A stretch of 48,350 nucleotides of DNA from Lachnospiraceae bacterium (GTDB lineage Bacteria > Bacillota > Clostridia > Lachnospirales > Lachnospiraceae), in assembly GCA_022793195.1 (NCBI GenBank), contig JAAWCJ010000045.1, forward strand, positions 1-48,350, read 5' to 3'. The notes under the pieces were generated by a model. The model was not told the origin of the DNA. It saw only the letters and a list, made by a program, of their open reading frames with translations, and made no database searches. Positions 1,109 to 48,350 of the stretch are shown piece after piece. The first letter of the stretch is position 1. Each line of letters opens with the position of its first letter. The position numbers and the translations under genes are program-made.

Positions 1109-1116
1109 GAAATGAC

Positions 1117-1323
1117 GGAGTAAAAATACCTGCCCGACGCCCGCTTGCCTCTGTGCCTGACCACGTTGATTTTTTGGTTTTGCTGCGCCGCCTATTGCCG
1201 CCAGCCGCCGCTTCCATAGAAGCTGGTCAGCGGGACTGGCGCCGCTAGGCTCACAAAACCTTCAAAATCTGCCTACCGGTCAAGCCCAGAGGCAAGCGGG
1301 CGCCGGGCAGGTATTTTGTCTCC
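1117..1323. repeat. Long structured palindromic element, copy A
   Basis: Arms 1117-1162 and 1278-1323 (46 nt each) pair almost perfectly; the heart of the arm is CCCGCTTGCCTCTG against CAGAGGCAAGCGGG. Inside, GATTTTTTGGTTTTG (1168-1182) pairs with CAAAACCTTCAAAATC, then come a CCAG/CTGG helix and a CCGCT/AGCGG helix around a CTTC-CATA-GAAG tip. A related element with different arms lies at 37832-38005. Copy A fills the space between convergent genes. No T-run follows on either strand, so it is more elaborate than an ordinary terminator. It could be a non-coding RNA, a palindromic mobile element or a bidirectional processing/termination signal. Confidence 0.85.
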
Positions 1324-1331
1324 GCCACTTT

Positions 1332-37831: not shown

Positions 37832-38005
37832 TGGCCCCGTCAGCCACTTGCCTCCCGTCCACGTTGATTTTTGGGTTTTGTTGCGCCGCTTATCGCCGTC
37901 TGCCGTCGCTTCCATAGAAGACAGTCAGCGAGGACAGACGCCGCTATGCTCACAAAACCTGCAAAATCTGCCTATCGGACGGGAGGCAAGTGGCTGGCGG
38001 GGCCA
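37832..38005. repeat. Long structured palindromic element, copy B
   Basis: Arms 37832-37860 and 37977-38005 (29 nt) pair with one mismatch or wobble; the heart is CCACTTGCCTCCCGTCC against GGACGGGAGGCAAGTGG. The inner 115 nt match copy A (1117-1323), including CCACGTTGATTTTT, CGCTTCCATAGAAG, CTCACAAAACCT and CAAAATCTGCCTA. Arm sequence differs from copy A, but pairing is retained. Inside, GTCTG/CAGAC here replaces CCAG/CTGG, and TCGCT/AGCGA replaces CCGCT/AGCGG. It begins 22 nt after the lactonase stop. Confidence 0.88.
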
Positions 38006-38014
38006 CAGCATATG

Positions 38015-38277
38015 GATTTTGTATATTCTCGTCAAACGGCAGGGCGGCTTCGAGGCCTGTGCATTGGCGTGGATGTTAAAATTTCTTAATGTTCTGCTGT
38101 ATATCCGGCAATTTCCGGACAGGATGTCCGGAAAAGGCTTATGCCGCCATGGACGGCGGGTCATAAGCCGGTTGCCAATTTTTATTCCGTATGAATCAGA
38201 ACATTTAGAAATTTAACATTCACGTCACCAGCACAGGAATCGAAGCCCCCTGCCGTTTGACAGGATATGCAAAATTC
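38015..38277. repeat. Second long palindrome with nested hairpins
   Basis: Arms 38015-38096 and 38197-38277 pair over about 80 nt with roughly four in five positions matching, many mismatches being G-T wobbles; the best block is GTCAAACGGCAGGG against CCCTGCCGTTTGAC. Between them are a perfect 9-bp hairpin TTCCGGACA-GGA-TGTCCGGAA (38113-38133) and a stem GGCTTATGCCGCC with GGCGGGTCATAAGCC (38136-38169). The right arm reaches the radA stop codon. No T-run follows. It fills the rest of the convergent lactonase-radA gap, and no gene is seen there. Confidence 0.85.
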
Positions 38278-46838: not shown

Positions 46839-48350
46839 TCAAGGGCGGTTCTCTTTTTTCGGCCTTTTACTTCCTGCTGCCGTATCACGAATTGGGTTTA
46901 CGGGTTTTTTCTCCTGCTTCTTCTCAGGAAAATCCCGTCCGGCCTTTGCCGCAGCCCGGTTTACAATGCTGTTTGCCCCGTCAGGTTTTCCATTTCGGAC
47001 TGAATCGGACAAAAGCGCATCCAACAAATCAAAATCCGCATCCAGGTCATCATCATCCATATCCAGGCTATCATCATCTACATCCAAATCATCATCCACA
47101 TCCAAATCATCATCCGCAGCTGCCACCCGTTCCTGCTCCTCAAGCCTTTCCACGTCCGGTTCTTCCTCTGTTTCTCCTGCACCAGATTCTTCAAGGCCAT
47201 CTTGAGCCATCCCGTCATCTCCAGGATAAGAAGATTCAACCCGGCTTTTCTCCTGACCGCCGTTTTCCAGCGGTATCTCTTCCAGGTCGTCATCCTCTGC
47301 CAGGCTTTCTTCTGTATCCCTGCCTTCAGCTGCCATCTCCTCCCGGCCACTGTCTGCACTCACAGCCTCCGTATACCCATTGTCTTCCAACACGATTTCT
47401 TCCAGACCGGTATCTTCAAGAGTAAATTCTTCCAGGACGGAGTCATCCAACACAATCTCCTCCAGGCCGGTATCTTCTAATGTAATCTCCTCCAGGCCGC
47501 CGTCTTCAAAATCAGTATCCTCTAAATCAATCTCTCCCGGCGCCTTCTCTTCCAGTCCACTGTCTTCCGGTACACTTTCTTCCGATACATCCTCTTCCAT
47601 ATTATTTTTTTCTTCCGAACCGCTTTCTTCCGATACGGCCATTTCGAAAGTTTTCTCTTCTTCAAAAGCCATATCCCCGGATTCCACATTTTCGGCACTG
47701 ACACTTTCCAAGTCAACGTCCTCTAAGCCGAAATCATCCGAATCCCTTTTTTCTTCTTCGACCTCCTCTGCCGCTTCTTCCTGATGGACTTCCATAAAAT
47801 CTACCTCTTCCGGATCCGCCTCCGCAAAGCCCACTTTTTCCGAATCGGTTTCCACCAAATCTACCTCTTCCGGATCTGCTTCCGCAAAGTCCACTTCTTC
47901 TGAATTTTCTATTCCATGAAGCCTCGGCAGGGGAGCCGTGTCATCGTCCAGGGCAGAATTTGATTCCGCCGCAATCTCATCCGCTTTACTGGCTGTCAGA
48001 AGTTTTTTTTTCCTTTTGGCCATATCGTCCTTTTCGTCCGGAATGATATCACCTGGTTCGCCGTCTTTTATACCGTCTGCCCCATGGGAAGGATTTTCTT
48101 TGACAGGTTCCTCAGGCTTCCTGCCCTCACCTTCACCGGACTGCCTGCCGCCTTCCCCATAGGCCACTTCATAACCATCATCATCACTGATGTCATCATC
48201 GTCTACATCATAATCATCATCTAATTCATAATCACCATCTAATTCATAATCACCATCTAATTCATAATCACCATCTAATTCATAATCACCATCTAATTCA
48301 TAATCACCATCTAATTCATAATCACCATCTAATTCATAATCGTCATCTAA
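46839..48350 (-). CDS. Very acidic repeat protein, 5' end cut by window edge
   Basis: The frame is open from the right edge to 46839, over 503 codons; the GTG at 48167 is not a true start because the frame continues upstream without a stop. The protein is dominated by Asp/Glu. At the edge it has about seven ELDGDY repeats, then DDDDISDDDGYEV, later imperfect units such as GLEEIVLEDTGLEEI, then DDDLDVDDDLDVDDD, and a basic tail (KKQEKKPVNPIRDTAAGSKR, PKKENRP). No enzyme fold, signal or membrane segment is seen in this part. It could be a scaffold or disordered linker. The function is unknown. Confidence 0.8.
   Translation of the reverse strand, partial: LDDDYELDGDYELDGDYELDGDYELDGDYELDGDYELDGDYELDDDYDVDDDDISDDDGYEVAYGEGGRQSGEGEGRKPEEPVKENPSHGADGIKDGEPGDIIPDEKDDMAKRKKKLLTASKADEIAAESNSALDDDTAPLPRLHGIENSEEVDFAEADPEEVDLVETDSEKVGFAEADPEEVDFMEVHQEEAAEEVEEEKRDSDDFGLEDVDLESVSAENVESGDMAFEEEKTFEMAVSEESGSEEKNNMEEDVSEESVPEDSGLEEKAPGEIDLEDTDFEDGGLEEITLEDTGLEEIVLDDSVLEEFTLEDTGLEEIVLEDNGYTEAVSADSGREEMAAEGRDTEESLAEDDDLEEIPLENGGQEKSRVESSYPGDDGMAQDGLEESGAGETEEEPDVERLEEQERVAAADDDLDVDDDLDVDDDSLDMDDDDLDADFDLLDALLSDSVRNGKPDGANSIVNRAAAKAGRDFPEKKQEKKPVNPIRDTAAGSKRPKKENRP
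48223..48350. repeat. 18-bp tandem repeat, about seven copies
   Basis: The unit AATTCATAATCACCATCT (coding ELDGDY on the minus strand) repeats with an exact 18-bp period from about 48223 to the window edge, with variants at both ends. The period keeps the reading frame, so copy number can change without breaking the gene. Confidence 0.92.

What the first reader, a model, noticed from the sequence alone, without database searches (positions are those of the whole stretch)
1117..1323. Palindromic element family with covarying helices (copies at 1117-1323 and 37832-38005)
Two elements 36 kb apart share a core of about 115 nt. The outer arms have different sequences (46-nt and 29-nt arms) yet each arm pairs with its own partner. 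Two inner helices also change in step: CCAG/CTGG versus GTCTG/CAGAC, and CCGCT/AGCGG versus TCGCT/AGCGA. The loop TTCCATAGAAG and the GATTTT/AAAATC helix are unchanged. Compensatory change points to selection on folding, not on primary sequence. Both copies sit in gaps between convergent genes, next to a regulator gene and a lactonase gene. I do not recognise the family. It could be a structured RNA, a palindromic mobile element, or a transcription-insulating element.
Basis: partly seen in the sequence, partly recalled or inferred. Interest (0 to 1): 0.78.

Follow-up and report, generated by a model that had tools for sequence, protein, structure and literature searches.

The report
Dispersed DNA hairpins with yoked arms
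The two elements belong to a large family of dispersed DNA hairpins in Lachnospiraceae whose two arms drift in sequence yet keep mirroring each other, and whose centre seems to flip over in place, which suggests that paired changes in a stem need not mean selection on an RNA.

Summary
Both window copies belong to a dispersed family: 71 covariance-model hits in the host genome (63 stronger ones analysed), present in 7 of 11 same-genus genomes and scattered through Lachnospiraceae. Rfam has no match at gathering score. A conserved asymmetric core of about 115 nt lies between long arms that differ from copy to copy yet pair with their own partner. Helices covary massively (28 of 29 pairs change on both sides). 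The arms, however, do not look like an RNA stem under selection: mismatches show no overall wobble bias (G·T 255, A·C 250), and at nine orthologous sites they diverge about as fast as third codon positions (0.31 against 0.29) while staying largely complementary. At five of the nine the core is inverted in place (three clear cases). Arm homogenisation with spacer inversion is the published signature of template switching between inverted repeats. The core is conserved in place (0.09). Copy 1 sits in the loop of a terminator hairpin that is empty in a sister species; at copy 2 the sister has lost the core and kept the arms. Best reading: a palindromic DNA element that lands in terminators, its arms yoked by copying. 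Insertion route and core function remain unknown.

The parts
1114..1128 (.). probable left half of the host terminator hairpin interrupted by copy 1
   Evidence: in sister genome G403 (95% identity over a 369-base query next to the site) the same gap holds an uninterrupted hairpin GGCGGAGATAA...TTATCTCCGCC followed by a T-run and no element
1129..1158 (+). copy 1, left arm (outer limit approximate)
   Evidence: pairs with 1282-1311; arms differ between copies
1159..1281 (+). copy 1, conserved asymmetric core
   Evidence: 151.5 bits with model R1
1282..1311 (+). copy 1, right arm (outer limit approximate)
1312..1326 (.). probable right half of the interrupted host terminator hairpin
37832..37856 (+). 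copy 2, left arm
   Evidence: part of a 29-nt inverted repeat, 97% complementary; nearly the same arm remains in G403 without the core
37857..37980 (+). copy 2, conserved asymmetric core
   Evidence: 143.9 bits with model R1; missing at this site in G403 except for its last bases; no element at the site in G392
37981..38005 (+). copy 2, right arm

Best explanation
It is a family of dispersed, non-coding, palindromic DNA elements of about 180 to 260 nt that lie mostly after gene ends in Lachnospiraceae. Shown by sequence: each copy has a conserved asymmetric core between long arms; the arms drift but stay largely complementary; the core lies in opposite orientation at some orthologous sites; copies are found in the loops of hairpins that are empty in a relative; sites exist where the core is gone and a plain arm hairpin is left. 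Inferred: during replication the arms form a hairpin or cruciform and one arm serves as template for the other (template switching). A switch within the arms makes them alike; a switch that carries through the core inverts it. The paired arms would then be kept by a copying process and drift at about the neutral rate. Also inferred: the core, which keeps its unpaired asymmetric bases although the arms around it are made alike, is selected as an orientation-independent recognition site for an unknown factor, or for the element's own spread.
For: Copy number: 71 hits at E<=0.01 in the host genome, 32 in G392 and 30 in G282. Pairing: own arm is the best partner in 28 of 31 copies; 92.7% of cells paired and 28 of 29 pairs with changes on both sides on 122 distinct rows. 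Arm mismatches G·T 255 against A·C 250 over 162 copies. At positional orthologues doubly changed columns were 74 transversions, 51 transitions and 13 matched indels. Nine reciprocal-best loci give means of arm divergence 0.31, third-codon-like 0.29, core 0.09 (my averages). Core inverted at 5 of those 9 loci, with flanks 60-140 nt out keeping host order (identity 0.65-0.83 against 0.41-0.57 swapped). Site inside a hairpin loop at copy 1 and at own C56:38721. Core lost and arms kept at copy 2's site in G403. Placement 64 convergent, 68 tandem, 8 divergent, against 43, 86, 48 in a G392 sample. The mechanism is published for inverted repeats in general: PMC8604942 (passages) and PMC8794818 (abstract and opening text).
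Against: No enzyme for insertion was found and no general target-site duplication. G·T exceeds A·C in two genomes (G400 22 to 6, G404 16 to 8). In the core the G·U to A·C count depends on which pairs are used: 32 to 61 on 24 well-paired positions, 152 to 87 on all 29, where 108 of the 152 come from two positions. In one search, 217 columns are changed on one side or mismatched, against 138 doubly changed; for unrelated letters transversions would outnumber transitions two to one, so 74 to 51 is no excess. Arms diverge faster than third positions at 5 of 9 loci and slower at 4 (0.10 to 0.52). The third-position estimate takes the fastest phase of each block and is biased upward. Reciprocal-best matching was done against small pools (10 to 31 copies for the partner genomes), and for C46:122342 and C15:6901 the orthologue (0.08, 0.07) is hardly closer than paralogues (0.08, 0.09), so replacement by a new copy is not excluded there. 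Low core divergence could partly reflect exchange among copies. The inversions are read from draft assemblies.
Confidence: 0.57

Rival explanations
1. A structured RNA family (3' UTR element or small RNA) whose helices are kept by selection on RNA folding.
For: Covariation over 122 distinct rows is overwhelming; unpaired core bases are conserved across genera; on all 29 model pairs G·U exceeds A·C, 152 to 87, and in the arms of G400 and G404 as well; 7 own copies, and some in G392 and G404, carry a similar optional hairpin domain at one fixed spot.
Against: Over all arms wobble is not favoured (255 to 250), nor on the 24 well-paired core positions (32 to 61); orientation relative to the neighbouring genes differs between orthologues; no Rfam match at gathering score.
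Confidence: 0.2
2. An ordinary MITE moved in trans by an insertion-sequence transposase, with the core as transposase site and no role for the host.
For: Many near-identical cores in the host genome; repeat GGGGCTGTTGCAAAATAT at the outer ends of many own copies and in 11 short inverted pairs; own C44:7299 has no hairpin at the orthologous place in G403.
Against: Ends are not conserved between genomes; no general target duplication; I recognised no autonomous partner among the 63 pattern hits, where the only inverted pairs 0.6-4 kb apart are two that involve short hairpins or an element's own end; I did not search for DDE transposases; cores at orthologous sites are conserved, which spread alone does not require of old copies.
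Confidence: 0.25
3. A bidirectional transcription terminator or insulator kept by selection for a stable stem.
For: Placement after gene ends; at the copy 1 site several other genomes of the genus hold ordinary terminators.
Against: Only weak T enrichment beyond the arms (host genome 0.34-0.45 in the first 15 nt, 0.25-0.34 further out; weaker still in G392); a terminator needs neither the long conserved core nor its asymmetry.
Confidence: 0.15

Closest known systems
REPINs (paired REP sequences with RAYT transposases; PMC3116915, abstract and passages read)
   Same: dispersed extragenic DNA hairpins in high copy; the paper also calls compensatory changes on the two sides of the hairpin common
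   Different: REPINs keep their ends and vary in the spacer; here the middle is kept and the ends vary. The host genome has no match to the Y1 transposase family
ERIC/IRU, RUP, BOX and other bacterial MITE-like palindromes (recalled; PMC2229807, PMC10969869 and PMC3049150 seen only as search listings)
   Same: short intergenic palindromes in many copies
   Different: copy 1 has no match in E. coli genomes; arms differ between copies and the core appears to invert in place
Template-switch homogenisation of inverted repeats (PMC8604942, passages; PMC8794818, abstract and opening text; PMC1803023, abstract; PMC3820800, abstract)
   Same: arm homogenisation, spacer inversion, structure more conserved than sequence
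   Different: those are separate loci in yeast, nematodes or RNA genes; here it would act on one dispersed family with a conserved core of about 115 nt

Membership tests
Rfam family (any of 4227) | match at gathering score | tested here: not met
   window: only TwoAYGGAY and a tRNA. Permissive search of copy 1 gives mir-3160 (39.7 bits, E 2.5e-5, gathering 80), MIR8622 (32.3, gathering 197) and Rev44, far below their cut-offs, as a long hairpin may. Ten relatives' loci: none at E<=0.1. Six insert-bearing loci: only a 6S RNA nearby
REPIN/RAYT | Y1 (RAYT-type) transposase in the genome | tested here: not met
   0 matches to PF01797 in the host genome, 90% complete
REPIN/RAYT | conserved ends with a variable spacer | tested here: not met
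   mean pairwise identity of cores 0.90, of arms 0.68
IS-derived MITE | conserved terminal inverted repeats shared with an IS | tested here: inconclusive
   repeat GGGGCTGTTGCAAAATAT in many own copies, no autonomous partner recognised among 63 hits; ends differ in other genomes; transposase families other than Y1 not searched
IS-derived MITE | target-site duplication | tested here: inconclusive
   direct repeats of 8 nt or more: host 10 of 63 against 3.6 shuffled, but 6 of the 10 are one shared junction; G392 4 of 31 against 1.1, G402 3 of 22 against 1.2, G282 2 of 30 against 1.2
group IIC intron or retron | reverse transcriptase | tested here: not met
   0 matches to PF00078 in the host genome; G392 has 1 and G282 has 4
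structured RNA | tolerance of G·U over A·C on the transcribed strand | tested here: inconclusive
   arms 255 to 250 overall; core 32 to 61 on 24 pairs but 152 to 87 on all 29; 11 tRNAs as a small control gave 219 WC, 12 G·U, 0 A·C, a count biased by the tRNA finder
intrinsic terminator | GC-rich stem followed by a T-run | tested here: inconclusive
   stem present, T enrichment weak
integron attC site | cognate integrase and cassette array | not tested
   considered from memory only

The most novel reading that the evidence does not exclude
The core is a folded DNA motif read by a dedicated, still unknown factor in either orientation. It gives the bacterium a dispersed set of extrudable hairpins at gene ends, seeded by insertion into terminator loops through a route that, in the host genome, needs neither a Y1 transposase nor a reverse transcriptase, while template switching keeps the arms paired for free. 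Covariation would then mark a structured DNA, not an RNA.
Probability: 0.25. Interest if true: 0.85.

Novelty: new variant of a known kind. Interest (0 to 1): 0.6.

Why it matters
Covariation is widely treated as proof of a functional RNA. Here is a bacterial family with dozens of natural replicates per genome in which strong covariation goes with neutral-rate arm drift and apparent in-place inversion. It makes the claim that template switching can imitate compensatory evolution (PMC8794818) directly testable in bacteria, and it describes a Lachnospiraceae repeat that Rfam, the one annotated library of such elements used here, does not hold.

Tried and rejected
Retron, group II intron and RAYT readings: dropped for the host genome because it has neither RVT_1 nor Y1_Tnp matches. 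Phage or plasmid element: no exact match of two core patterns in viral contigs, and no match of copy 1 in phages or plasmids. A 10-bp target duplication seemed likely from the copies inside GGGGCTGTTGCAAAATAT hairpins, but it is one shared junction and does not generalise. Replication-strand bias was judged only by eye from the mixed strands of the G282 list. I first took the short hairpins only as targets; G403 shows that hairpins without a core also arise by core loss (own C25:40481, and copy 2's site).

Rows dropped: 8 of 71 own hits below 59 bits were not analysed. Arm counts left out copies with the extra domain, with short flanks or with alignments too short. One search used 22 of the 26 two-sided pairs (4 with extra domain or truncated core left out) and 20 of these in its totals (2 above 97% flank identity left out); several pairs share a locus. 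One search used 24 of 29 pairs; on re-check I counted all 29, which reverses the core G·U to A·C ratio because of two positions. For that reason I raised the RNA rival from 0.15 to 0.20 and lowered the main explanation from 0.60 to 0.57. One search covered 100 of the loci held.

Full report
Observation. Copy 1 (1117-1323) and copy 2 (37832-38005) are as described: long inverted arms around a shared core, folding far beyond shuffled sequence as RNA or DNA. Both lie between convergent genes.

Family. A BLAST search of the host genome with the copy 1 core gave 40 matches, the most the tool scored of 79 candidates. A covariance model built from 31 copies finds 71 matches at E<=0.01 in that genome; I analysed the 63 of 59 bits or more. 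In the genus 7 of 11 genomes have it at E<=1e-4 (own 66, G392 32, G402 26, G400 13, G403 12, G404 11, G401 4; none in G095, G397, G398, G399). In a family sample 16 of 397 genomes, the host included, in 14 of 334 genera. A broader model finds it in 9 of 392 genomes sampled from the order, eight in the host's family and one weak match in another family, and in 1 of 398 genomes sampled from the phylum, the host itself.

Anatomy. The core begins CCACGTTGATTTTT and ends ACAAAACCTGCAAAATCTGCCTA in the host; in G282, another genus, its unpaired bases are largely kept while the helices differ. Seven own copies carry an optional hairpin domain at a fixed place (one of them shortened), two carry other hairpins there and one lacks the inner hairpin. 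Arms measured up to 75 nt out have medians of 38 to 61 nt. In many own copies the outermost part is GGGGCTGTTGCAAAATAT or a variant; the same repeat forms 11 short inverted pairs without a core.

Covariation. On 124 aligned matches (122 distinct) 92.7% of cells are paired, 28 of 29 pairs have changes on both sides, and 727 cells are doubly changed against 212 (sd 12) in shuffles; slid controls score 0.05-0.09 against 0.523. That alignment was fitted to the model's structure, which favours it. The arms pair best with their own partner in 28 of 31 copies.

Is it an RNA pattern? If one strand acted as RNA, G·U should exceed A·C on that strand. In the arms the counts are 255 and 250 over 162 copies (132 in the genus, 30 in G282), but the genomes differ: G400 22 to 6, G404 16 to 8, G402 27 to 37, G282 34 to 47. 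In the core, 24 well-paired positions give 32 to 61; all 29 give 152 to 87, of which 108 G·U come from two positions, one of them a nearly fixed T·G. So the arms speak against an RNA on one strand, and the core does not decide.

Orthologous sites. Flank comparison gave 26 pairs with both flanks matched. Arms at such sites can be unrecognisable between species yet self-complementary: own C25:40481 and G392 C1:221885 share flanks up to the arms while the arms read CCTGGGGCTGTCCTCTCCTCC and CGGCGTCGTTCCTTCCGTG. In 20 pairs (not independent) 307 columns were unchanged and paired, 138 doubly changed (74 transversions, 51 transitions, 13 indels) and 217 changed on one side or mismatched. Fifteen of 22 pairs, from nine loci, are reciprocal best core matches among the copies held. 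Over the nine loci the means are arms 0.31, third-codon-like positions 0.29, core 0.09 (my averages); arms exceed third positions at five loci and fall below at four. Non-orthologous arms differ by 0.46, so some loci are saturated.

Inversion. At five of the nine loci (own C2:97757, C15:6901 and C46:122342 against G403; G392 C2:165084 against G404; G392 C45:2648 against G402) the core lies in opposite orientation although flanks 60-140 nt out keep host order. Three cases are clear because the orthologous core is much closer than any other copy of the partner genome (C2:97757 0.05 against 0.12, C2:165084 0.06 against 0.13, C45:2648 0.09 against 0.26); for the other two the margin is 0.02 to 0.03. 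In two loci the innermost 8 nt travel with the core, in the others they do not tell. Arm homogenisation and spacer inversion together are what template switching between inverted repeats produces (PMC8604942).

Coming and going. At the copy 1 site the sister genome G403, 95% identical over the query next to it, has a plain hairpin GGCGGAGATAA-AATGC-TTATCTCCGCC with a T-run; the host has what look like its two halves on either side of the element. G400, G399, G404, G392, G398 and G095 hold ordinary hairpins there; G402 shows no clear one, in G401 the left neighbour differs, and in G397 the contig begins there. In 800 kb of G403, 19 own sites had both flanks: one is filled (C15:6901); C18:26741 keeps remnants with the extra domain; copy 2's site keeps nearly the same arms but has lost the core except TATCGGAC; C25:40481 is a plain hairpin although the more distant G392 and G402 share the element, so it was lost there; four (C13:37742, C44:17580, C38:10806, C55:19454) hold short hairpins related to the outer repeat; C56:38721 shows a host palindrome without the unit; C44:7299 has no hairpin; the other nine hold other sequence. 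In G392 the sites of copy 2, C25:44491, C55:19454 and C56:38721 have no element, C40:107528 a decayed hairpin.

Placement. Genus copies: 64 convergent, 68 tandem, 8 divergent, 10 at contig edges; intergenic gaps in a G392 sample 43, 86, 48 (crude gene calls). A different gene caller gave 28, 30 and 4 for the host and 4, 23 and 3 for G282, so the excess of convergent over divergent sites is not seen in G282. T-runs beyond the arms are only weakly enriched.

Mechanism. Shown by sequence: family, pairing, near-neutral yoked arms, core conservation, opposite core orientation at orthologous sites, hairpin-loop sites, core loss. Inferred: arm to arm template switching as cause of yoking and inversion; selection on the core; any binding factor. 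Not explained: how new copies insert. The host genome has no Y1 transposase and no reverse transcriptase by Pfam, with about 10% of the genome possibly missing; other transposases were not searched.

Literature. Searches for a Lachnospiraceae palindromic repeat of this kind returned no paper; broader ones returned related mechanisms and other families. The library is open-access PMC only, so a description elsewhere cannot be excluded.

Noticed in passing
window 38064-38228 (+): TwoAYGGAY RNA (Rfam RF01731, 100.6 bits) lies just downstream of copy 2, between the same two genes.
   Followed up: no
window 48208-48350: 18-nt tandem array, 7.9 copies at 97% matches, running to the window end; further repeats at 47034-47905.
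   Followed up: no
L206-L225 (host genome): A second dispersed family of short terminator-like hairpins AAAGGGGCTGTTGCAAAATAT...ATATTTTGCAACAGCCCCTTTT, with or without the large element inside.
   Followed up: partly
host C47:3311, C43:59064, C9:41397, C40:90148, C29:57539, C57:7751, C38:85; similar in G392 and G404: Optional insert AAAGCACTAAAGCGCGAAAATACCTTGCTAAG with further hairpin sequence at one fixed point of the element; its second helix varies between copies.
   Followed up: partly
L135:84-264: 6S RNA (67.8 bits) about 3 kb from the element at host C47:3311.
   Followed up: no
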